Source: Spiroplasma sp. (lineage in GTDB: Bacteria > Bacillota_I > Bacilli_A > Mycoplasmatales > VBWQ01). From it: a stretch of 64,000 bases of DNA. Below the pieces are notes generated by a model, which was given only the letters and a program-made list of their open reading frames with translations, was not told the origin of the DNA and did not search any database. The stretch lies in assembly GCA_031119525.1 (NCBI GenBank), contig JAVHXO010000002.1:1903-65902 (forward strand). Direction: 5' to 3'. Shown here piece after piece: positions 10,043-61,394 of this stretch (the first letter of the stretch is position 1; every line of letters starts with the position of its first letter). Both the position numbers and the translations under genes were made by a program.

Positions 10043-10645
10043 CTATGCCTCCTTTACACCCTTGTTATCTTGTTTCTTTACGTTATCTTGTTTTGGTTGC
10101 TTTGGTTTTCGCTTGAATGGAAAACCAAATTGTTCTAATAATCTAATTGCTGCTTCTTTGTCTGATGTTGAAGTAATAATAGTTATCTCTAAACCTCTGA
10201 TTTTATCAACATCTTCATAGTTGATTTCAGGGAAGATAATTTGTTCTTTAACACCAAAAGTATAATTACCATTTTTGTCGAAAGAATTTCTTGATAAACC
10301 TTGGAAATCACGTACTCTTGGTAGCGCAATTGAAATTAATTTATCTAAGAAGTCTATCATTTTTTGACCCCTTAGGGTTACCTTACAACCAATTGCCATA
10401 CCTTCACGAAGTTTAAATCCAGCAATTGATTTCTTTGCTTTTGTGATTACTGGTTTTTGCCCAGTAATTTTTGTTAATTCTAATACAGCTTTATCTAAAG
10501 CCTTAGGTGTAGCAACAGCATCACCAACACCAATATTAATAACAATTTTTTCAATTTTCGGTACTTGCATAATTGATGAGTATTTTAAGTCTTTTTGTAA
10601 TTGGTGAACAATCTTTGATTGATATTTTTCTTGTAAACGATTCAT
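10043..10645 (-). CDS. rplE: 50S ribosomal protein L5
   Basis: uL5, 200 residues, binds 5S rRNA. Family segments include [15 protein letters not shown] and GCKVTLRG. I chose ATG 10645 because the protein then begins MNRLQEKY, like other L5 proteins. A longer start at 10666 (MGGQEF) overlaps the rplX stop and itself contains the GGGAGG that may serve as ribosome site. It has a basic C-terminal tail of about 20 residues ([15 protein letters not shown]). Confidence 0.94.
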
Positions 10646-10665
10646 ATTAAACTCTTGTCCTCCCA

Positions 10666-11022
10666 TTAATTAACTTCTGATCCAGATTTACGATAAATCC
10701 GAATTTTCTTATCATCTTTAATTATGTACCCAAGTCTTGAAACTTTTTTTTGCTTTGCTTGTTTACCATCAATAATCATGACATTAGAAATATGAATTGG
10801 AGCAGGAATATCAATAATTCCGCCTTCTTTTTCTTCTTGTGATGGTTTTTGATGTTTCTTCATTGTAATACCTTCAAGGACAACACGATTTTTATCACGT
10901 AATACTTTAATAATTGGTGCAACAGTTCCTTTATGTTTTCCAGCGATAACTTTTACTTTATCGCCTTTCTTTAATTTAGTATCAAGAATTGTAATTGCTT
11001 TAGTTTTTTTATTTAATGCCAT
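10666..11022 (-). CDS. rplX: 50S ribosomal protein L24
   Basis: uL24, 118 residues, an early assembly initiator of the large subunit. The KOW motif ([17 protein letters not shown]) is near residue 20 and HISNVMIID follows further on. Its stop overlaps a possible long start of rplE. Confidence 0.96.
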
Positions 11023-11038
11023 AATAATTCTTTTCCTT

Positions 11039-11407
11039 CTAAACTATTTCTTCTGCTAGAGAAGCAATTTTGTTGAAACCACGTTCTCTAACTTCTCTTG
11101 CTAAAACACCAAATACTCTAGTACCTCTTGGTGTTTTATCATCTTTTATTACTACTGCTGCATTATCATCAAATTTTACACAACTGCCATCATTTCTTTT
11201 AACGCCAAATTTTGATCGAACAATAACTGCTTTCACAATTTGTCCTTTTTTAACAGCTGAATTTGGTGTTACTACTTTAGCAGAACAAACAACAATATCG
11301 CCAATATTAGCAGTCTTCTTATTACTTCCACCTAAAACTCTAATTACCATAGCTTCTTTAATACCCGTATTATCGGCAATATTAATTCATGATAAATTTT
11401 GTAACAT
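11039..11407 (-). CDS. rplN: 50S ribosomal protein L14
   Basis: uL14, 122 residues, part of the intersubunit face. The true start is ATG 11407. The first 19 residues ([19 protein letters not shown]) include a TGA=Trp, so a standard-code reading would begin too late. It starts only 2 bases after the rpsQ stop. Confidence 0.96.
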
Positions 11408-17195: not shown

Positions 17196-17990
17196 TTATT
17201 TTTTACCATTTTTAAAATTAATAATTTTTTCTGGATAATCATTATTATTTCTTGATATTGCAAAGTAAACAAGGACAATATCTTTTAATCATTTTAAAGC
17301 ATTTAATTTTTCTTTTTCATCAAATTGAGACAATAAATTAATATTTTTAGAATCTTTATGTTTGATTAAACCATTATTAAATAAATAAAAAATATCACTA
17401 TGAATTTTATTACCTAAACATTTTTTAATCTGTTCTTTTTCATTATCCAAATAATTGTTATAAATAATGCTTAAGTAATTTTCTAAGTCTTTTTTCTCTA
17501 AATTTTCTTTTGATAATTCTAATAATAAAGTTTTTAAATTCTTTTCAATTGGCAATTTATCAATTATCTCTGCAATTTCCTTTTTTACTAAATGATATTC
17601 TTTATATCTTGAACTTTTATTCAATGTATTATCAAATTTAATTAAGTTATAACCATTTCAATTTAAAAATTTTTCTAACTCATTTTGAAATTCATTAAAA
17701 ATCTCAAATCTTTCTCAAAATCTTTTATTTCCTACATTAGAAGTATTTGCTTTTAATTCTTTAAGCGCAATTGATATCATAGTTTCAAAAATATTATAAA
17801 AAAATTCCAAAGTTGGCAGAAATCAATCATTTGTATTAAATTCTTCTTCAATATCAAATTGATTTCAAATTCTTTCATAATTCTCATTAATTTTTAAAAG
17901 CAATTTAAAATTTGAAATTTGAAAAAGTTCCTTAGCTGCTCAATTTAAATAATTATCATAATATTCAAAATTATCATAATATGTTCGCAT
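17196..17990 (-). CDS. Unknown protein next to RM island, possibly frameshifted
   Basis: A 264-residue frame with several TGA=Trp codons, mostly helical, acidic and Asn/Glu/Lys-rich, with no signal peptide or membrane segment. I recognise no family. The best ribosome-site-bearing start is upstream at 18087 in another frame (MKKEYSMFEQLKNIEL). Joining the two requires a one-base shift in the T7 tract (A7 on the coding strand) at 18020-18026. The native protein may thus be about 295 residues, with this gene broken or phase-variable. The first ATG in the intact frame is 17990, without a clear ribosome site. It lies between the S10 promoter and the hsdS cassette. Confidence 0.6.
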
Positions 17991-18262: not shown

Positions 18263-19201
18263 TTATTTTATTAACAAAAATATTAATTGTTGTTGTAATT
18301 TCTTAAGGTTTTCTTCAAAAAAATTAATTCTTAGCAATAAATTATAAAGATTTTTCAAAATAAATTCATGAGAATTAGAATATTTATTTATTGATAATAT
18401 ATCTTCTTTTTTAATAAATTTAATCACAGCTCCGTTTGATCTTTGACGTAAATTATCTAACTCTTTATTTAAAGAATAAAATGTAGTATAAAAATCTTTT
18501 TTTTCTTTTAAAATATATACTCTTTGATAAGCATCAAAAATACCATTATAAATTCAAGTGAATATCTTTCCATTGCCTGATAAAATTATATTTCTACCAG
18601 AAAAAGAAGAACTATTTGTTTTTAAAATTCTTTCACCACAAGTATAAAAATTAAATTTGCCATTACCAACTGCTGCATCAGCATTTAATTTGCCAGTATT
18701 TATTGTTTTAAATATATTTTTTTCATCAGTTTTTTTAATTTCCAATTTATTAATAAAAATAATAATTTTATTTTTAATATTTAATAATTTATTATTTATT
18801 TTTTCTATTGGTTCGATAATGTCAATTATTTTTTGTTGTATATTTATTTTTATTGGATTTATTAAATTTATAAGTCTTTTTCATTCATTTATATTTGCTC
18901 TTTGAACGGTTGTACCATTACTTATTATTTTATTAATATAAAATAATAACCCATAATATAAATATTTTGTAAGAAATTCATTACTAGTAATTCTATATGT
19001 TTTTTGATGATGTGAAAATTTTCCATTAACATATTGAATTGAAAAATTTCCTTCTGAAGGCACTATAATATACTCTCCATTATATGAAAAAGAATTTATA
19101 TTTTTAAATGTGTTAGATCTATCAAAATATTTATATTTATATTTATTTGAAAATTTCATTAACGATGTTGCTTTAATATCTCCTGTATGTATAATAGCCA
19201 T
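18263..19201 (-). CDS. hsdS: Type I restriction specificity subunit HsdS, silent cassette
   Basis: A 312-residue frame with the two-half organisation of HsdS. The first target-recognition half runs to about residue 135, then the conserved hinge IIDIIEPIEK, then a second half ending LIFLLIK like the other hsdS. Its start (MAIIHTGDIKATSL) enters the first domain about 35 residues late compared with the plus-strand hsdS. No ribosome site or promoter precedes it; the recombinase terminator lies immediately upstream instead. It therefore looks like a stored, unexpressed cassette. The hinge DNA (18801-18829) is an inverted copy of that in the other hsdS, so inversion could join its second half to the expressed gene. 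Confidence 0.85.
18801..18829 (-). repeat. Inverted repeat IR2, copy in silent hsdS
   Basis: On the minus strand this 29-base stretch differs at one position from 20469-20497 on the plus strand. It encodes the IIDIIEPIEK hinge. It is the outer arm of an inverted pair enclosing the recombinase and both hsdS 5' halves. Confidence 0.85.
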
Positions 19202-19205
19202 TAAT
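19193..19205 (-). repeat. Inverted repeat IR1 at hsdS start, silent copy
   Basis: ATTAATGGCTATT on the minus strand, identical to 20000-20012 on the plus strand. Both copies contain the hsdS start codon. The pair immediately flanks the recombinase gene and its terminator. Confidence 0.75.
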
Positions 19206-19214
19206 AAACAAAAA

Positions 19215-19239
19215 ACAAGTTCTATTTAATAGAACTTGT
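19215..19239 (-). terminator. Terminator of recombinase gene
   Basis: An 11-bp perfect stem (ACAAGTTCTAT / ATAGAACTTGT) with a three-base loop, followed on the minus strand by six T's. The TAA stop of the recombinase (19226-19228) lies in the loop. It insulates the silent hsdS from readthrough. Confidence 0.85.
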
Positions 19240-19942
19240 CGTATATTTTTTTATTTTCTTCAATTGATAATTGTAAATATCGAAATGTAGTTTCAACCTT
19301 TTCATGGCCCAATTGCATCATTACCATTTTTGGATTTGCTCCCTTCAAAAGTAAATGAGTTGCGTGGGATCTTCGTATTGAATGGGGAGTATATTTTTTT
19401 CCAAGTATTTCTTTTGTTCATAATCTAATTGTTTTAGTAGTAACATTTTTAAATTGAATTTTATTTGTTGTATTAAAATTATGAAAAATTTCTCTGACTT
19501 TATTCCCTTTTCCAATCACTGTTATTGTTTTTTTATTAAAAGTAACAATTTGATTTAATTCACAAACTCTGAGTCCTGTTTCAAATAAAAATTTAATTAA
19601 CATTTTTTTATTAATTTTTTCTAAAGTATCAATGTCTTTAATTTCTGTTTTTGTTAGTAAATATTTTTTATTAAAAACAACCATAAATTTTTTTGGAATT
19701 CTAGGCAGTTTCATTTCTTTTAATAAATCTAACCTTTTATCTTTAGTTCATTTTAAATAAGAAGAAATCACATTATAATGTGTTCAAACTGTATTAGGAC
19801 TTTTAAAGTAATAAGAAAGTTTTTTCTTAATTAACCTAATGTCTTTTAAAGCATGTTGGTATAAACTTAAAATACTTTTATATGTTTTAATTGTATTTTC
19901 AGAATATTTGTTTCTTTTTAAATAATTTATATATTCTTTCAT
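19226..19942 (-). CDS. Tyrosine site-specific recombinase (XerC/D-like, hsdS inversion)
   Basis: A 238-residue integrase-family protein. Residues 1-75 form the SAM-like DNA-binding domain (NKYSENTIKTYKS). The catalytic domain carries the Arg of FETGLRVCEL, then HSIRRSHATH (His-x2-Arg), LGH and the nucleophile Tyr in FRYLQL, so all key residues are present. It begins at ATG 19942 behind GGAGG and is divergent from the plus-strand hsdS across about 60 bases. Placed exactly between two inverted hsdS genes, it most likely catalyses their inversion, as HvsR does in Mycoplasma pulmonis; that role is inferred. It is short for chromosomal Xer proteins (about 300). Confidence 0.9.
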
Positions 19943-19999
19943 TTTTTTACCTCCATACTATGTTATATAAGGTAAAATTAAATAATACAAAGGAGGTTC

Positions 20000-20012
20000 A
20001 TTAATGGCTATT
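20000..20012 (+). repeat. Inverted repeat IR1 at hsdS start, expressed copy
   Basis: ATTAATGGCTATT overlapping the start codon of the expressed hsdS; its inverted partner is at 19193-19205. Here it is preceded by AAAGGAGG, which the partner lacks. Confidence 0.75.
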
Positions 20013-21161
20013 TATAAACTTGGTGATATTTGTAATTATGTAGAAGGCTATGTTAATCCAGAAATTGCAAATGAAGATTATTTTGATTCAACTGGTACAC
20101 CTTGATTAAAAGTTGCTGATTTAATACATGGCTCTAATATTTATTCTACAAAAACTTATCTATCAACTTTAGGTAAATCATTAGCTAAACATGAAAATCA
20201 ATTGTTTAAAAAAGATTCAATTGTTTGATCAAAATCAGGTTCTATTGGTGTTACATCTATTTTAGGAATAGATGCTATGGCTAATAGAGGTATTCTTAAT
20301 ATTAAACCAAATACTAAATATATAAAAAATAAATATTTATTTTATTTTTTATGTAAAAATAAAACTATTTTTTCAAATAAAGGGTTTGGTGCTGTGTTAA
20401 AACACTTTTATGGACCTAATTTAATGAATGAAAAAATAAATTTGCCTTTATTAAAAAAACAACAAAGTATAATTGACATTATTGAACCAATAGAAAAGTT
20501 ATTTTTAAAATATTCAAATTGTGTTAGAATTAATACTTTTGAAAATGTTCAAAGTGACATAAAAAATTTAATTGACATTATTGAACCAATAGAAAAATTA
20601 GAAAATAATATTTATAGACAAATAAATAAAATAAATTTTTTAATAAAAAATATAAAAATAACAAAACAAAAAATTAAATTATCAGATATATTGGAACCAA
20701 TCAAAAATCCTCCTAAAAGACTAGAACAAGCATCGGCAAAAGTATTGATGAAAAATACAACACTAATATCAAGTTTAGAAAAAAAAGGAACCTATAATAC
20801 AAATTCATTTTTTTGTCCTAAAGAAACATTTTTATTTTGCTCAATAAGAACATATTTACAAAAATATTGTATTTTGCCTATTGATGCAGATGTAAATGGA
20901 ACACTTTATCAATTTAAAATAAAAAGAAATTTTACAAGTCTCTTAAATGCCTTGCAAAATAAAGAATTTTGACAAAAAACTAATTTATTAAGTACAGGTA
21001 CAAAAATGCCAAAAATATCACAAAAAGATTTTTTAAATATAAAAATAAATAAAACTACATTTGAAATAAAAAATTTAACAAAACTATTAGTAATTCAAAA
21101 TAAAGTTTTAATAAAATTAGATAAATTAAAAGAAAATTTAATTTACCTCCTAATAAAATAG
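20004..21161 (+). CDS. hsdS: Type I restriction specificity subunit HsdS, expressed copy
   Basis: HsdS chooses the DNA sequence cut and methylated by the HsdRMS complex. The protein has 385 residues: first target-recognition domain about 1-155 (MAIYKLGDICNYVEG), the hinge IIDIIEPIEK, a second in-phase copy of the hinge 33 residues later, then the second domain to the end (NLIYLLIK). Two TGA=Trp codons occur early. A strong AAAGGAGG site precedes ATG 20004. It converges on hsdM with 8 bases between the stops, so it is transcribed separately. The duplicated hinge would lengthen the helical spacer between the two domains, which in type I enzymes can change the length of the non-specific gap in the target. 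Confidence 0.92.
20469..20596 (+). repeat. Inverted repeat IR2, two direct copies in expressed hsdS
   Basis: Copy one at 20469-20497 and copy two at 20570-20596 are identical over at least 27 bases and lie 99 bases apart, in phase. Both are inverted with respect to 18801-18829 in the silent cassette (one mismatch). They encode the hinge motif EPIEK. Confidence 0.85.
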
Positions 21162-21169
21162 AAAAAGCA

Positions 21170-22705
21170 CTAGGCTTCTTCACCATCATCTTGGAAGTCC
21201 AGTGCTTTTTGAATTGCATCTTCTACTTTAGGAGCTAAATCATTAAATTCTTTTAATAAAGTTGAAATTTCAGTTGACAATTTTTTAATTTCTTTTTTAA
21301 CTTGTTCTTTATCAATTTTTTCTTCTTTGGAACCAACATAACGTCCTGGAACAAAAGAAAAATCATTTTCAATTAAATCTTCTTTAGCAATTGATTTAGC
21401 AAAACCAATCTCTTCAACTATTTCACCAGCTTCATGTTGATCAAAAAGATTAACAATTCGATCAATATCTGATTTTTGTAATTCTCTTAATTTTTTAGAA
21501 ATCATCCGACCTTCAATTGTTGAAGCAGAAATCATTAAAACTTTATCCGTTTTTTTATTATTGTTAAAAAATCAAACACAAGCAGGAATACCGGTTGTAT
21601 AAAATAATTTATCTGGTAACTCAACAATTGCGTCAATTTTATTTGCTGCAATTAAATTCTTTCTAATTGCTAATTCATCTTTTTGCGATGATGATAAAGA
21701 ACCATTAGCCAAAATAACTGCTGCTCGACCATTTGTATTTAATTTAGAAACTATATGTGATAATCAAGCATAATTAGCATTACCTGATGGTGGTACTCCC
21801 CATTTTCATCTAGGATCATCTAATAAAGCATTTTGACCTCATACTTTTAAATTAAAAGGTGGGTTAGCCATAACAAAATCAAATTTTTTATTTTTATGCA
21901 AATCATTAGCAAATGTATCAGCAGAAAGTTCACCCAATACCCCATTGTCATGGGTATCAAATAAAGCAAAACCGTTAAGAACTAAATTTAATTTAGCTAA
22001 TTTTCATGTAACATTATTATATTCTTGCCCAAAAGCAATCATATTTGCAACATCACCATGATGCTCTTTAATATATCTTTTTGATTGTACTAAAATACCA
22101 CCAGTACCACAACAAGGATCATAAATTGTTCCTTTCATTGGTTTTAAAACATTAACCATTAATTGAACAATTGATGTTGGAGTATAAAATTCGCCTCCTT
22201 TTTGTCCTCGATCTCTAAAAAAGTGACCTAAGAAATATTCATAAATTCTACCAATAATATCTTCTTCTTCATTTTGAGAAAAATCTTCATCAGAAAAAAT
22301 TTTAACTACCCCACCAAGTTTTTTTTGATCTAAACCTTCCTTGTTATAATTTTTATTAAAAATACCAACTAACATCTTATTTGTATTTTCTAATTCAATA
22401 AATGCTTCATCTAATTTATTTCCAATATCTGGAGTATTAGCAAACGTCATAATATAATCTCAAGATGCTTTTTCAGTAACTTTAAATGTCTTATATGTAT
22501 AATATAATTCTTCAGGTTCTAATAAATCTTCTGTTATCTCGTCAAGTGCTATTTGTTTTAAAGCCACTTTATAACGATCAGAAATATATTTTAAAGATAA
22601 TATACCTAAAATAATGTGCATATATTCTTCAGCGGACATATTACCTCTTAAAGTATCTGCTGCCAACCAAAGTTTTGATTCAATTTCATTAATATTTTTT
22701 GCCAT
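21170..22705 (-). CDS. hsdM: Type I restriction-modification methyltransferase HsdM
   Basis: N6-adenine methyltransferase subunit, 511 residues. The N-terminal helical domain (about 1-150) is followed by FFRDRGQKGGEFYTPTSIV, the SAM motif DPCCGTGGILVQ and the catalytic NPPF (in FVMANPPFN). The C-terminal helical region pairs with HsdS. Several TGA=Trp codons fragment it under the standard code. It starts 2 bases after the hsdR stop, so the two are co-transcribed. Confidence 0.96.
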
Positions 22706-22707
22706 TT

Positions 22708-25700
22708 TTAATCATCCCTTCTAAAAAATTCTTTGTCAATTTTAATTTCTCTTGTTAGTTGATCAACTAAAATTCCTGAAACACCACCTAAATGATCTGG
22801 TGGATAATTATATTTTGTTTTTAATAAAATTTTTAATTTTGTTTTAATTTTTGATCGTACTTGTGGGTTATTTTCATATTGTTCAGTACCACTTTTTTTA
22901 ATTTCATCAACTAATTCTTCAGCTAATCTTCTCAAAACTTCTGAATTTTGATTATTTTTTAAATAATCATCATTTGAAAGAACTTCAAAAAATGCTTGTA
23001 ATTGACGATCTTTAAATTCTAATGGCTTATTTTTTTCATTAACAATATCTTTACTTAATGCTTTTAATAATTCCATAACTTGTTGAATATCTTCTTGTCT
23101 TTGCAAAGCATTAATAATCTCTCTTAACTTATCAGAAGCTTTCTTGGCAAAAACTGGCCTGATATTTTGTAAGATTTTTAGATTTGCTTTAATTGAATGC
23201 TTCATGAATTCAATCGCAACATATGGGGAAGATTTTTCTAATTCTTTAGCTTCTAAAGCTAAAATTTTAGCAACTTCATTAATATTTTTAGAAATTTTTG
23301 TTGCTGAAACAAAAACTTCAGACGTTTTTGAATCAACAGCTCGAGCAATTGCTGCTTTAATTAATGCAATTGTATTTTGTAATTCTTCATCTGTTTGAAT
23401 TGAAGTTGATGAAATAAAAGAATTAATAACTTCAATACATTTAGCTGTCGTTGCTTCTGTTTGATTAATAACTGAATAAGCCATTTTAAAAAATCTTTTT
23501 GTTTTTCTTGCTAAAAGAATAAATTCATTTTTTTTATCAACAACTTCAGCTAAAATTTTATCAACTGCAGAAATAATAAATCGATATTGTTCTTTTGGAT
23601 TTAATAAAATAAATTTATCTAAATCTTTAACATAAGAATCATTAATAATTGCAAAAGCTTCAAGTAATTTTTCTTTTGCTTTATTAACATCTTCAATTGA
23701 AATATCAACAGTTTGTTCTTTACCAGAAGCATAATGTAACAATGCATCTGCTAATAACTTTCAAATCCCAATATAATCAACAATTAACCCATTTTCTTTA
23801 ATTTGTTTAGTAATTTTATCTTCATATGTTCGATTAACTCGAGCAATTGCTTGCATTAAATTATGTCATTTAATAATTTTATCAAGGTAAAGAACATCAA
23901 GATCTGGAACATCATAACCTGTTAATCACATATCAACAACAATTGCAATTTGATACTTAGAATTATCTTTTCTAAATTCTTCAGCCACTTTATTAACATC
24001 TCTTTTAGGAACTATTGCTTTTCACATTTCATCTAAAGTATCTTTATTACTTTCAGTAATAACAAGAATTACTTTATCTTTTAATGAAGGATCGAGTGAA
24101 ATAATTGTTTTATAATACTTAAAAGCTGCTAACCGAGTACTAGCAACAATCATTGCTTTACCATGTAAAACTGCCGATCTTTTCGCTAAATGCCTCAAGA
24201 TATCTGTTGCTTTGGCTCTAATAACATCATCATCTTCTAAAATTTGTTTAAGCCGAACCGATTTTAATAAAGTATCAATTTTTTGTTGTGAAGTAATATC
24301 ATTAAGATTAAGTGTTTTAAGATATTCATTTTGAATAAAATCCATCTCATCTAACTCATCTTGATTTAAATCAAGATTAACTTTTCGCATTTCATAATGA
24401 ATTGGCACAACAGCATTATCAGCAACAGCATCATTCATTGAATAAATATGATTATAATCACCAAAAACTTGCGTAGTTTCTTTATCAAATTTCATTAATG
24501 GTGTACCAGTAAAACCAATAATTTTGGCATTTGGAAAAGCATCACGCATATATCGAGCAAAACCAAATTTATTAATAAATTCTTCGTTTTCTTTTGAAAG
24601 AATCTTTTCACCATCAATGTTATTTTGTGTTCGATGCGCTTCATCAACTAAAATGAATAAATCACCTCTATCTGTTAAAACACTTGCTTCTTCAGTAAAT
24701 TTTTGAACTGTTGAAAAATAAATACCAAAATGTTTTTTATCTTTAAGTTTTTGCTTTAAATCTTTTCTGCTTTCAATTGTTACTGCTTTATTTCGTAAAT
24801 AATCTTCAGCATTTAAAAATCGTTTATGTAATTGTTGGTCTAAAGTATTACGATCTGTAACAACAACAATTGTTGCATTATTTATTTCTTCAATAATTGC
24901 TTTAGCAAGCATGACCATTGTCACTGATTTACCAGAACCTTGAGTATGTCAAACAACTCCACCACGATTATCACCAGCAATTTTTAATTTTGCAATTGTT
25001 TTTATAACAGCTTCAATTTGATGTGGAGCTGCCATATATTTAACAAACGCATTATTTTCAAGAGAATAAAATGAAAAAGTTGTAATAAATTTATAAAAAT
25101 TATCCTTATCAAACAAATACTCTAAGATATCAATTCCATCCTTTGTTTTGAAATTGTTAATAGTATGCATTCTTTTAAAACCTGCTAAACTTGAACCATA
25201 CAACGAAACAATCCGATTAGATAAAAAATTCATAACATTAAAAGCTCATAACTTTGGTAATTGTTGTTTTAATGATTGATTTTGATTAAACGCATCTTCA
25301 AGGTTTTCAGTTGCCAAAGGTGCTTTCAATTCAAAAACTACAACAGGTAAACCATTAATATATAAAACAACATCTGGTACTCGTAATGTACGACCATCAG
25401 AAACTTCTAATTGTCTAATGACTTGATATACATTTTGACTGTTATTTTGGGAAATTAATTTAATTGTTTTATATAATTCAGTTTTTTGATCATAAACTTT
25501 AATTCCTTCAACTAAAAAATCTCAACATTCTTTGTTCATACTAATATAAGTATCATTAATTCTTTTAATTTTATTAATTGCAACAACTGCAATCTCATCA
25601 TCAACATGATTAATTTCTTTAATTTGCTCTTGTAATAAAGAAAAATCAATTACTTCTTGAGTATTATTTCTTTTAATACTAGTAATTTGTTTTCATCCTA

Positions 25701-25779
25701 AAGCATTAAGTTTTTCAACTATTTCTTCTTCAAACCTAAACTCTTTAAGAAACCTTAAATCTTTTTCTACAACGTTCAT
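22708..25779 (-). CDS. hsdR: Type I restriction endonuclease subunit HsdR
   Basis: The motor and nuclease subunit, 1023 residues. The N-terminal PD-(D/E)xK nuclease is visible as VPDVVLYINGLPVVVFELK (near residue 130). The SF2 helicase follows with Walker A HTQGSGKS, the DEAH box (LVDEAHRTQ), FTGTPL, and motif VI-like QAIARVNRTY. The C-terminal 340 residues are helical and contact HsdM. The frame is intact when TGA is read as Trp. It begins at ATG 25779 behind GGAG and leads the hsdR-hsdM transcript. Confidence 0.96.
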
Positions 25780-25983
25780 AATCTCCAAATTCCCTCACAA
25801 TCTTATATACCCTTAATTAAACATCTATCTTTCATAACCTAGATTTAACACTTAACTATTATAAATAGTATAACTTAATACTAAACTTTGCAATTTAATC
25901 AGTGAAAAAAATAATTTGCAAAAACATAATCTTAATATATAATTAATAAACTTAATTTAAAACTATTATCAATGATAAAAAAT

Positions 25984-58997: not shown

Positions 58998-61394
58998 TTA
59001 AATAATATATTTAGAATATGGCAAAGATTTTATAAAATTTTCCATATATTCAAAGTCAGGAACATCTTCTCCTTTTATTCTTTTACTTGGTAAAAAAATA
59101 AAACTATTTTTCATTCTGTAGATTCCTCATTTTCTACCATAATTAAAACGAAACTTTTCTCATTTTATCATTGTACATAAAAACATAGCTAAATAATTAC
59201 TCATTTTATAATTAACAATACTTAAGATAGTTACATCATTTGTAGCTAAAAATTTTAAATTTTGATAGAAACTCTCACCTACTGAACCATTATTAGCAAT
59301 AGTAATAACATTTTTAAAATTTAAATCATTTATATCTGTACTATCTGCATATTTAATAATTCCATTATTTAAATATGTAGTAGTAACAAATGGAAATTCA
59401 GTTCCTATATCATAATCATTAACTTTTACACCGTTAGCTCTTTTGATTTCAAAGAAATTATTATTACCTAAACTAAAAAGTTTTCAATTTTTAAATTGAA
59501 TATCTAAAATATTATCAAAATAAATCATTTGTGAATCACTTGATACTTTTTTAATTTGTTCTGAATTAAATAGAAATGTAGCGTATTCTTTAATTGTTTT
59601 TATAAAATGTTTTTTATTTAACTTATTATAATTAGTATCAATATAGTTTCGGGCAACCATTCATCGTCATATTTTAAACTACATAGTTTTGTTGTATACG
59701 AATCAGAAGTATCTTTATTTTTAATCACATTTAAGCATTTTTGTTCTATTTTATTTCATTGACCATTATCTACTCTGCCACTATATTTTTTCTTTTTAAA
59801 TCCATCATCTTTTAAAGAATATAAAATGGTATTATCATGCTTTTCTCAAGCCCTTAATAAAAGTACACAAGTTACTTAGTGTAGCAGTAGGATAAAATAA
59901 CTCTTCTGGCATAGAAATTACAGCTTCTAATTTATGATTTTCTAAAAGCTCTTTTTTCAAAATAGTATTAAAAGATTTTTTATTTCTAGACAATATTGCT
60001 GAAACTGGCACAATGCCAACACCAATTCCTCCCTTAGACAAAGAATTCATCATGTGTAAAATAAATTTTAATTCTTTTTGATCATCTTTTTTTTGAGAAT
60101 ATGGTGGATTTATTAAACCAACATTAGGATGAAATTTTTTATTAATTTCTTTAGGACTTTCTAATAAAGAATTTTTACAAAATAAGTTTGTTTTACCATC
60201 TCCTCGAATTATCATATTTGAGCATGCCAAAGCAAAAATATCATCTTGTATTTCATATCCAATCAATTGCTTTGAATATATATTATTTATTTCCTTTACT
60301 GACAAATCTTTTGTTTTATCAGTAAACATTTTATCTAAAGCTGCTATTAAAAAACCTCCAGTACCGGCGCAAATATCTATTACTGTAGATTTATAATTAA
60401 TATCTGCTAATTTAGCAAATAATGTAGTTATATGTTTTGGAGTTAATACAATACCAAGTCCCTTACCATCACCTCCAGTATATCTAACAAATTCAGAATA
60501 AAATTTTCCAACTAAATCAATATTTCGAACTTGTTTCATGAATGGGTAAACTTTTTCTTCTAAATCTATTAAAAACTTATATAAAAGATTATTATTATAT
60601 GAAGAATCATTCGGTATAATTTCTCCTTTTAATAATTCTTGTTTTTTAACAACTACCTGAAATTCTCTATTTAAAACCTTAATTTTATTGTTATCCAGTT
60701 TTGAATTTTCTAAAGCCATTCTAATAAACATTAAAATATTATCAGCAAGAATATTACTATTTAAAATAGATTTATATTGTTTTCTAAAACTATCATTATT
60801 TAAAGCTAATAAAAGTAATGAAACTAATAAAGGCTTTTCTGTTTCTTTTAATTTTGCTTCATCTCTCATAGCATTATGCAATTCTCTAGAATATTTAATT
60901 AATTCTTGTTCGTTAATATCTTGTTTAGTGCTTTCAAAAATTGTTAAATATTCATCAAAACCTACTAAATCATTAAAATTTCTAGAAATATATCTTTGAT
61001 CATTTTTTAGTCAAGAATAAGCTGAAATTTTAATATTTTCAGGATTTTTCCCGCTTACACCAATTGCAATAACATTATATTTTTCCTTTAAACTACTTGC
61101 ATAATGTAAAGCTCCATCTACAGCAAAATCTTTTGGTAAATCTAAATTTTCACTAATATGATTTTTAATATTATATTTACATTCTAGTACAATTACCAAA
61201 TTTTTATTTTTATGTCAAATGATAAATTCTGGTTTCCCATTACCTTTGCCACTCTTGCTTGAAAATTTAAGTAAATTTCTTATATTTTCATTACTTGAAA
61301 TTTGTTCATCAATTATTAGATTTTCATTTTCATAATAATTTAATTTTTTCAATTTTTCTCGAACTATATTTTCTGTAATTCTTTCATTTACCAT
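58998..61394 (-). pseudogene. Single-chain restriction-methylase (type IIG-like), two frameshifts
   Basis: About 798 residues if repaired. The N-terminal nuclease part has PEFIIW...IVLECKYN (PD-(D/E)xK, about residues 56-75). The N6-adenine methylase has DICAGTGGF (about 341) and NPPYS (about 430). The C-terminal third is an HsdS-like target-recognition domain (SLGNNNFFEIKRANG, FVTTTYLNNGIIKYA, TIANNGSVGESFY). Frame one stops at 59832. A one-base excess in the GGG at 59851-59853 (CCC as printed) shifts it to a second frame, which carries YSLKDDGFKKKKYSGRVDN. A missing base near 59647-59649 returns it to the first frame. Both breaks are in homopolymers. Separate cutting and methylating chains are not seen nearby. 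Confidence 0.8.

What the first reader, a model, noticed from the sequence alone, without database searches (positions are those of the whole stretch)
18263..21161. Invertible hsdS locus: recombinase between two inverted specificity genes
A tyrosine recombinase with a full catalytic set lies between a minus-strand and a plus-strand hsdS. The two genes share a 29-base inverted repeat (one mismatch) at the hinge (18801-18829 with 20469-20497) and a 13-base one at the start codons (19193-19205 with 20000-20012). Inversion at the hinge would keep the expressed gene's ribosome site and first recognition domain but exchange its second one, giving a new target specificity. The principle is known from Mycoplasma pulmonis hsd loci (HvsR) and other inverting type I systems. 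The specific arrangement here, with the recombinase inside the invertible segment and a single silent cassette, deserves attention.
Basis: partly seen in the sequence, partly recalled or inferred. Interest (0 to 1): 0.85.

Follow-up and report, generated by a model that had tools for sequence, protein, structure and literature searches.

The report
Eight-state invertible DNA-methylation specificity switch
A Spiroplasma-type bacterium carries a flippable DNA cassette, conserved in related mollicutes, in which a site-specific recombinase and the promoter it carries can reshuffle two specificity genes into eight different versions of its restriction-methylation enzyme; the principle is known, but this promoter-inside, two-site, hinge-changing layout looks like a new variant of it.

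Summary
The locus is an inverting type I R-M system. A Xer-like recombinase (19226-19942, -) lies between two inverted hsdS genes beside intact hsdM and hsdR. The 29-nt hinge repeat and the 13-nt start repeat are real.

At least 13 mollicute loci, from Spiroplasma to Mycoplasma todarodis, share the module. The recombinase points either way relative to hsdRM; its tree needs at least 3-4 flips. The hsdS divergent from it has a ribosome site. The other begins just after the recombinase's terminator and has none. So promoter and ribosome site lie inside the inverton: a start-site flip changes which gene is read, and a hinge flip changes TRD2. Central hexamers match between partner genes in 14/14 (hinge) and 11/11 (start) pairs while varying between loci. 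One gene of most pairs carries a 33-residue hinge cassette bounded by two site copies. In silico, the window and seven orthologues each give eight in-frame HsdS from two genes.

A relative's assembly holds both orientations of a start-site inversion, although it lacks this recombinase.

Verdict: known kind, new variant. Activity in this organism and the effect of hinge length are untested.

The parts
18263..19201 (-). silent hsdS (312 aa; TRD1 'B', short hinge, TRD2 'b')
   Evidence: ORF in code 4; PADLOC Specificity_I models, E 4.7e-14; no Shine-Dalgarno upstream
18801..18829 (-). hinge site copy 3; core ATAA|TTGACA|TTAT
19193..19205 (-). start site of the silent gene, ATTAATGGCTATT, centre TGGCTA
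19214..19240 (-). terminator hairpin of the recombinase gene; its T-run abuts the silent hsdS start
   Evidence: 4 terminator-like sites in the region against 0.2 expected
19226..19942 (-). Xer-like tyrosine recombinase (238 aa)
   Evidence: Pfam PF00589 E 2e-16; catalytic residues aligned to XerD
19943..20003 (.). divergent promoter region with Shine-Dalgarno sites for the recombinase (19949-19954, -) and hsdS+ (19989-19996, +)
   Evidence: promoter itself inferred
20000..20012 (+). start site of the expressed gene
20004..21161 (+). expressed hsdS (385 aa; TRD1 'A', long hinge, TRD2 'a')
   Evidence: PF01420 E 5e-17; best PDB fold 1yf2; SD AAAGGAGGT
20469..20497 (+). hinge site copy 1
20479..20577 (+). 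99-nt / 33-aa hinge cassette between the two direct site copies
21170..22705 (-). hsdM (511 aa)
   Evidence: PF02384 E 5e-96, HsdM_N
22708..25800 (-). hsdR (about 1030 aa)
   Evidence: HSDR_N, SWI2_SNF2; TIGR00348 above cut-off

Best explanation
[quoted passage not shown] The Xer-like recombinase, together with the promoter and ribosome site it shares divergently with one hsdS gene, forms the core of the invertible segment. There are two classes of recombination site, probably read by this one recombinase. The start site (T[AT]AA|TGGCTA|TTTATAAAC) spans each start codon; inversion there turns promoter and ribosome site towards the other hsdS and leaves the first behind the recombinase's terminator, so the expressed gene changes. 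The hinge site (ATAA|TTGACA|TTAT-TGAACC) lies between TRD1 and TRD2; inversion there gives the expressed TRD1 the other TRD2. One gene has two hinge copies 99 nt apart, so the extra 33 residues can be passed between genes. Two genes therefore encode eight in-frame HsdS (2 TRD1 x 2 TRD2 x 2 hinge lengths). Shown: anatomy, conservation, matched site centres, both recombinase orientations among relatives, open frames. Inferred: that this recombinase catalyses the inversions, that they occur now in this organism, and that hinge length alters the target.
For: Intact hsdR, hsdM, two hsdS and a recombinase with the full catalytic set. Same recombinase-hsdS module in 13 further loci. Recombinase orientation relative to hsdRM differs among relatives, 5 same and 9 opposite, with at least 3 changes forced by well-supported branches and 4 on the best tree. 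In 11 of 11 loci with both starts resolved, the divergent hsdS has a Shine-Dalgarno (duplex -6.8 to -13.0) and the downstream hsdS has a terminator hairpin at its start and at most a weak match (-4.0 to +1.0). Central hexamers identical within pairs although they vary between loci: hinge 14/14, permutation P = 5e-6; start 11/11, P = 2.5e-4. Start and hinge arms resemble each other: TTATTGAACC matched 6-10 of 10 against a null mean near 3. TRD1 and TRD2 families recombined independently across loci. Simulation gives 8 configurations and 8 open HsdS in the window and in 7 orthologues. A relative's assembly holds both orientations of an inversion bounded exactly by the hsdS start repeat, with the Shine-Dalgarno swapped.
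Against: No reads were available, so no inversion was seen in this organism. The observed start-site inversion is in a genome without an orthologue of this recombinase, so another enzyme can act on such sites. The start repeat here is only 13 nt, with one mismatch in the arm just upstream. Site conservation partly reflects conserved protein sequence (MAIYKLG, IIDIIEP). The permutation tests ignore relatedness among loci. The short gene's AlphaFold model was poor (pLDDT 49).
Confidence: 0.84

Rival explanations
1. The hinge and start repeats recombine by RecA-type homologous recombination or by another chromosomal recombinase, and the local recombinase acts elsewhere.
For: In pneumococcus some hsdS inversions occur without the local recombinase (PMC6620402, title found; PMC7096588, reports less frequent PsrA-independent inversions). 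A relative without this recombinase shows a start-site inversion. Members of the recombinase family also sit beside lipoprotein genes without hsd.
Against: The repeats are short (13-46 nt). The hinge site has dif-like inner arms ATAA/TTAT around a 6-nt centre, and the variation lies in the centre, matched between partners. The recombinase stays beside the hsdS start region in all 14 loci.
Confidence: 0.12
2. The hinge repeats are only conserved coding sequence of the HsdS helix; the locus rearranged in the past but is now static.
For: IIDIIEP is conserved across all HsdS examined.
Against: Synonymous changes covary within loci (ATA ATC GAC in all copies of L034; ATT GAT in L036 and L043). Start-site matching extends into non-coding DNA in several loci. 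Orientation differs within the genus: window and L033 against L034.
Confidence: 0.06
3. The two-copy hinge is an inert duplication and the cassette does not affect the recognition gap, so there are four useful specificities, not eight.
For: No methylome data. A 33-residue insert is far larger than the 4-residue TAEL repeat that changes the gap in EcoR124 (PMC3874165), and it may loop out: the model shows helix 150-169, a loop, then helix 179-215.
Against: One long and one short hinge in 11 of 13 two-gene loci, exactly 99 nt between copies in the 8 loci measured, and both forms occur in the expressed position (6 long, 5 short).
Confidence: 0.5

Closest known systems
Listeria monocytogenes CC4 phase-variable type I R-M (PMC7662400)
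   Same: hsdR, hsdM, an active and an inactive hsdS with a site-specific recombinase between them; TRD shuffling at inverted repeats inside hsdS
   Different: There hsdR, hsdM and hsdS are co-transcribed and the inactive hsdS lacks a proper start codon and promoter; here both genes have starts, and promoter plus ribosome site lie inside the inverton
Streptococcus pneumoniae cod/SpnD39III with PsrA (PMC4948785, PMC7096588)
   Same: Locus-encoded tyrosine recombinase inverting between hsdS genes, with a short essential repeat (15-bp IR1)
   Different: Three hsdS and three repeat classes; hsdSA is the expressed copy; no promoter-carrying start-codon inversion reported in the passages read
Mycoplasma pulmonis hsd loci with HvsR (described in PMC9465063, PMC2268961)
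   Same: Mollicute type I R-M with inverted hsdS; hinge-cassette HsdS also found in related families
   Different: HvsR also serves the vsa locus; the original hsd papers were not in the library, so site details could not be compared
Mycoplasma hominis hsd2 with psrA between S genes (PMC11096450)
   Same: Tyrosine recombinase between inverted hsdS in a mollicute
   Different: Three or four hsdS; one hsdS in tandem with hsdR and hsdM
EcoR124I/EcoR124II (PMC3874165)
   Same: HsdS hinge length differs while both TRDs stay the same, changing the gap
   Different: There tandem 12-bp repeat number; here a 99-nt cassette bounded by recombination sites, effect on the gap untested

Membership tests
Inverting phase-variable type I R-M systems | Complete hsdR, hsdM and at least two hsdS in inverted orientation | tested here: met
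Inverting phase-variable type I R-M systems | Inverted repeats inside hsdS beyond chance | tested here: met
   score 31, 0 of 300 codon shuffles
Inverting phase-variable type I R-M systems | Recombinase gene at the locus | tested here: met
Inverting phase-variable type I R-M systems | Both orientations found in one strain or species | not testable with these tools
   No reads and one genome per species; only orientation differences between species
Inverting phase-variable type I R-M systems | More than one methylated motif per culture | not testable with these tools
   No methylome data
Xer-like tyrosine recombinases | Catalytic R-K-H-R-H-Y | tested here: met
   R125, K145/K148, H187, R190, H213, Y222; aligned to XerD 1a0p
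XerC/XerD equivalogs (chromosome dimer resolution) | Score above the NCBIfam cut-off | tested here: not met
   XerC 85 bits against 335, XerD 65 against 330
M. pulmonis HvsR-hsd type | Recombinase that also acts on a surface-antigen locus | not tested
   Family members beside lipoprotein genes in L039, L045 and L046 are suggestive only
Operon-driven S-rec-S (Listeria type) | Expressed hsdS co-transcribed with hsdRM, silent hsdS without a start codon | tested here: not met
   The gene with the Shine-Dalgarno converges on hsdM; both genes have starts

The most novel reading that the evidence does not exclude
A minimal two-gene inverton encodes an eight-state methylation code because the recombinase exchanges not only the two recognition domains but also a 33-residue hinge cassette that sets the gap between half-sites, while the promoter and the silencing terminator travel with the recombinase so that exactly one gene is read in every state.
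Probability: 0.4. Interest if true: 0.68.

Novelty: new variant of a known kind. Interest (0 to 1): 0.52.

Why it matters
Phase-variable type I systems change a cell's epigenome and its phage defence at random. Here two hsdS genes suffice for eight predicted enzymes, and one module ensures that a single gene is read in each state. If hinge length shifts the recognition gap, this would be the first case known to me of one inversion system switching both half-site identity and spacing. The matched central hexamers and shared arms give a sequence signature for finding such switches in other mollicutes; none of the 13 papers that my full-text search found for Spiroplasma with hsdS appears, from titles and abstracts, to describe one there.

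Tried and rejected
Length alone as support for the 13-nt start repeat: rejected, chance level; support came from orthologues. 'Recombinase inside the inverton' as novel: rejected, known in Listeria and M. hominis. Assignment to XerC/XerD: scores far below cut-offs. The original M. pulmonis papers were not held or not found. AlphaFold of the short HsdS gave no usable model. The two contigs of G303 were considered as a true duplication; either reading implies that an inversion occurred. The promoter scan found no excess over shuffles (34 against 31.3), so the promoter is inferred from Shine-Dalgarno placement and conservation. L055 is a degenerate example without clear start sites.

Full report
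Observation. Read with UGA=Trp, the locus holds hsdR (22708-25800, -), hsdM (21170-22705, -), an hsdS on the plus strand (20004-21161) that converges on hsdM, a tyrosine recombinase (19226-19942, -) and a second hsdS (18263-19201, -). The 29-nt hinge repeat extends to 46 nt at 89%, and no codon shuffle of hsdS+ equals its score (0 of 300). The 13-nt start repeat is at chance level by length, but it lies on both start codons. A third hinge copy lies at 20568-20596 in hsdS+, 99 nt after the second. The recombinase matches XerD and XerA structures and has R125, K145/K148, H187, R190, H213 and Y222, but it is not a XerC/XerD equivalog.

Relatives. The recombinase occurs in all three genomes searched in the window's genus, among them Spiroplasma sp. 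JKS002669 and S. platyhelix, and in scattered genomes of the order (43 of 298 at the permissive cut-off; 8 of 60 in one family). Fourteen loci, the window included, have the recombinase beside or between hsdS genes. They include W. lucivorax, M. todarodis and two contigs whose taxonomic labels (Lactobacillaceae, Elusimicrobiota) are probably wrong, since their genes group with mollicutes. In L033 the neighbouring hsdR and hsdM are a different type I core (24% and 34% identity) although the recombinase is 87% identical.

Who is expressed. In every locus with both starts resolved (11 of 11), the hsdS that diverges from the recombinase has a Shine-Dalgarno sequence. The hsdS downstream of the recombinase begins right after the recombinase's hairpin and T-run and has none, or in L044 a weak match. 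This holds whichever way the recombinase points relative to hsdRM. It points with hsdRM in 5 loci and against in 9; the recombinase tree needs four changes of this state, at least three forced by well-supported branches, and within the window's own genus L034 is opposite to the window and L033. The promoter and ribosome site therefore belong to the invertible part and serve whichever gene they face. In Listeria, by contrast, the expressed hsdS is in the hsdRM operon (PMC7662400).

The sites. Aligned on the hinge, the copies share inner arms ATAA and TTAT (TTAA in copy 2 of the window) around a six-base centre, an arrangement like dif (that comparison is from my own knowledge of Xer sites). The centre differs between loci (TTGACA, TTGATA, TCGACA, TAGATA, TAGACA) yet is identical between partner genes in 14 of 14 pairs (permutation P = 5e-6). 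The start site has centre TGGCTA, TGGCAA, TGGGTG or TGATTA, again identical within 11 of 11 pairs (P = 2.5e-4). These tests ignore relatedness among loci. The arm upstream of the start centre, read in reverse, matches the hinge arm TTATTGAACC at 6 to 10 of 10 positions against a background mean near 3. This fits one recombinase reading both classes, with different centres keeping the classes apart.

The hinge cassette. In 11 of 13 two-gene loci one gene carries about 33 extra residues (LFLKYSNCVRIDTFENV..DIKNL) and the other does not; L033 has the insert in all four hsdS, L042 and L055 in none (with M. todarodis hsdS+ counted as long on inspection, and the broken second gene of L042 read). In eight loci the two site copies are exactly 99 nt apart. 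The long form is in the expressed position in six loci and the short form in five. The cassette also occurs in HsdS of other mollicute families. The AlphaFold model of hsdS+ (pLDDT 73) shows helix 150-169, a loop and helix 179-215 at this place, and its closest solved folds are HsdS 1yf2 and M. genitalium 1ydx.

What the anatomy can make. Simulating inversions at base level, with only like sites allowed to recombine, gives eight configurations of the window, each expressing a different, fully open HsdS of 312-385 residues. Seven orthologues also give eight each. TRD1 and TRD2 families have been combined independently between loci and were never found in each other's position. L033_S3- and L034_S+ share both TRDs but differ in hinge form.

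An inversion seen. In a relative of another family (G303), two contigs 99.9% identical carry the segment between two hsdS start codons in opposite orientations. The breakpoints lie in ATGGCAATTTATAAACTTGGGG, and the Shine-Dalgarno passes from one gene to the other. That genome lacks an orthologue of this recombinase, so it shows that the start sequence is an inversion site in this hsdS family, not that this enzyme acts on it.

Verdict. The kind is known. The promoter-carrying start-site inversion with the terminator silencing the other gene, and the hinge cassette bounded by recombination sites, are features I did not find in the papers I could read. The original M. pulmonis papers were not available, so part of this may already be described there. 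Activity and the effect of the hinge on specificity remain to be tested.

Noticed in passing
L033 4056-13957 (Spiroplasma sp. JKS002669): Recombinase 87% identical and four hsdS genes, but neighbouring hsdR and hsdM only 24% and 34% identical to the window's: the S-recombinase module sits beside a different type I core. Its second hsdS pair (S3-, S4+) has its own matched start and hinge centres but no recombinase between.
   Followed up: partly
L039 9480-10244; L045 1453-2151; L046 9537-10289: Members of the same recombinase family next to lipoprotein-like genes with no hsd genes, suggesting use of the family for surface-antigen variation too.
   Followed up: no
L093 (G303 C1) and L094 (G303 C2): Two contigs of one assembly, 99.9% identical, differ by an inversion exactly between two hsdS start codons; probably two phase variants assembled apart.
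   Followed up: partly
58998-61394: A separate type IIG-like R-M system (REase-MTase 520 aa, 59832-61394) with a short 220-aa specificity ORF.
   Followed up: no
L042 about 10444-11345: The divergent hsdS, the one with the ribosome site, appears truncated within TRD1 with a broken frame, so this R-M may be off in that state.
   Followed up: no
L097 8115-9181: The hsdS downstream of the recombinase is split into two ORFs, and two hsdM genes stand in tandem upstream.
   Followed up: no
17196-17990: 264-aa minus-strand ORF downstream of the silent hsdS with no Pfam or PADLOC match.
   Followed up: no
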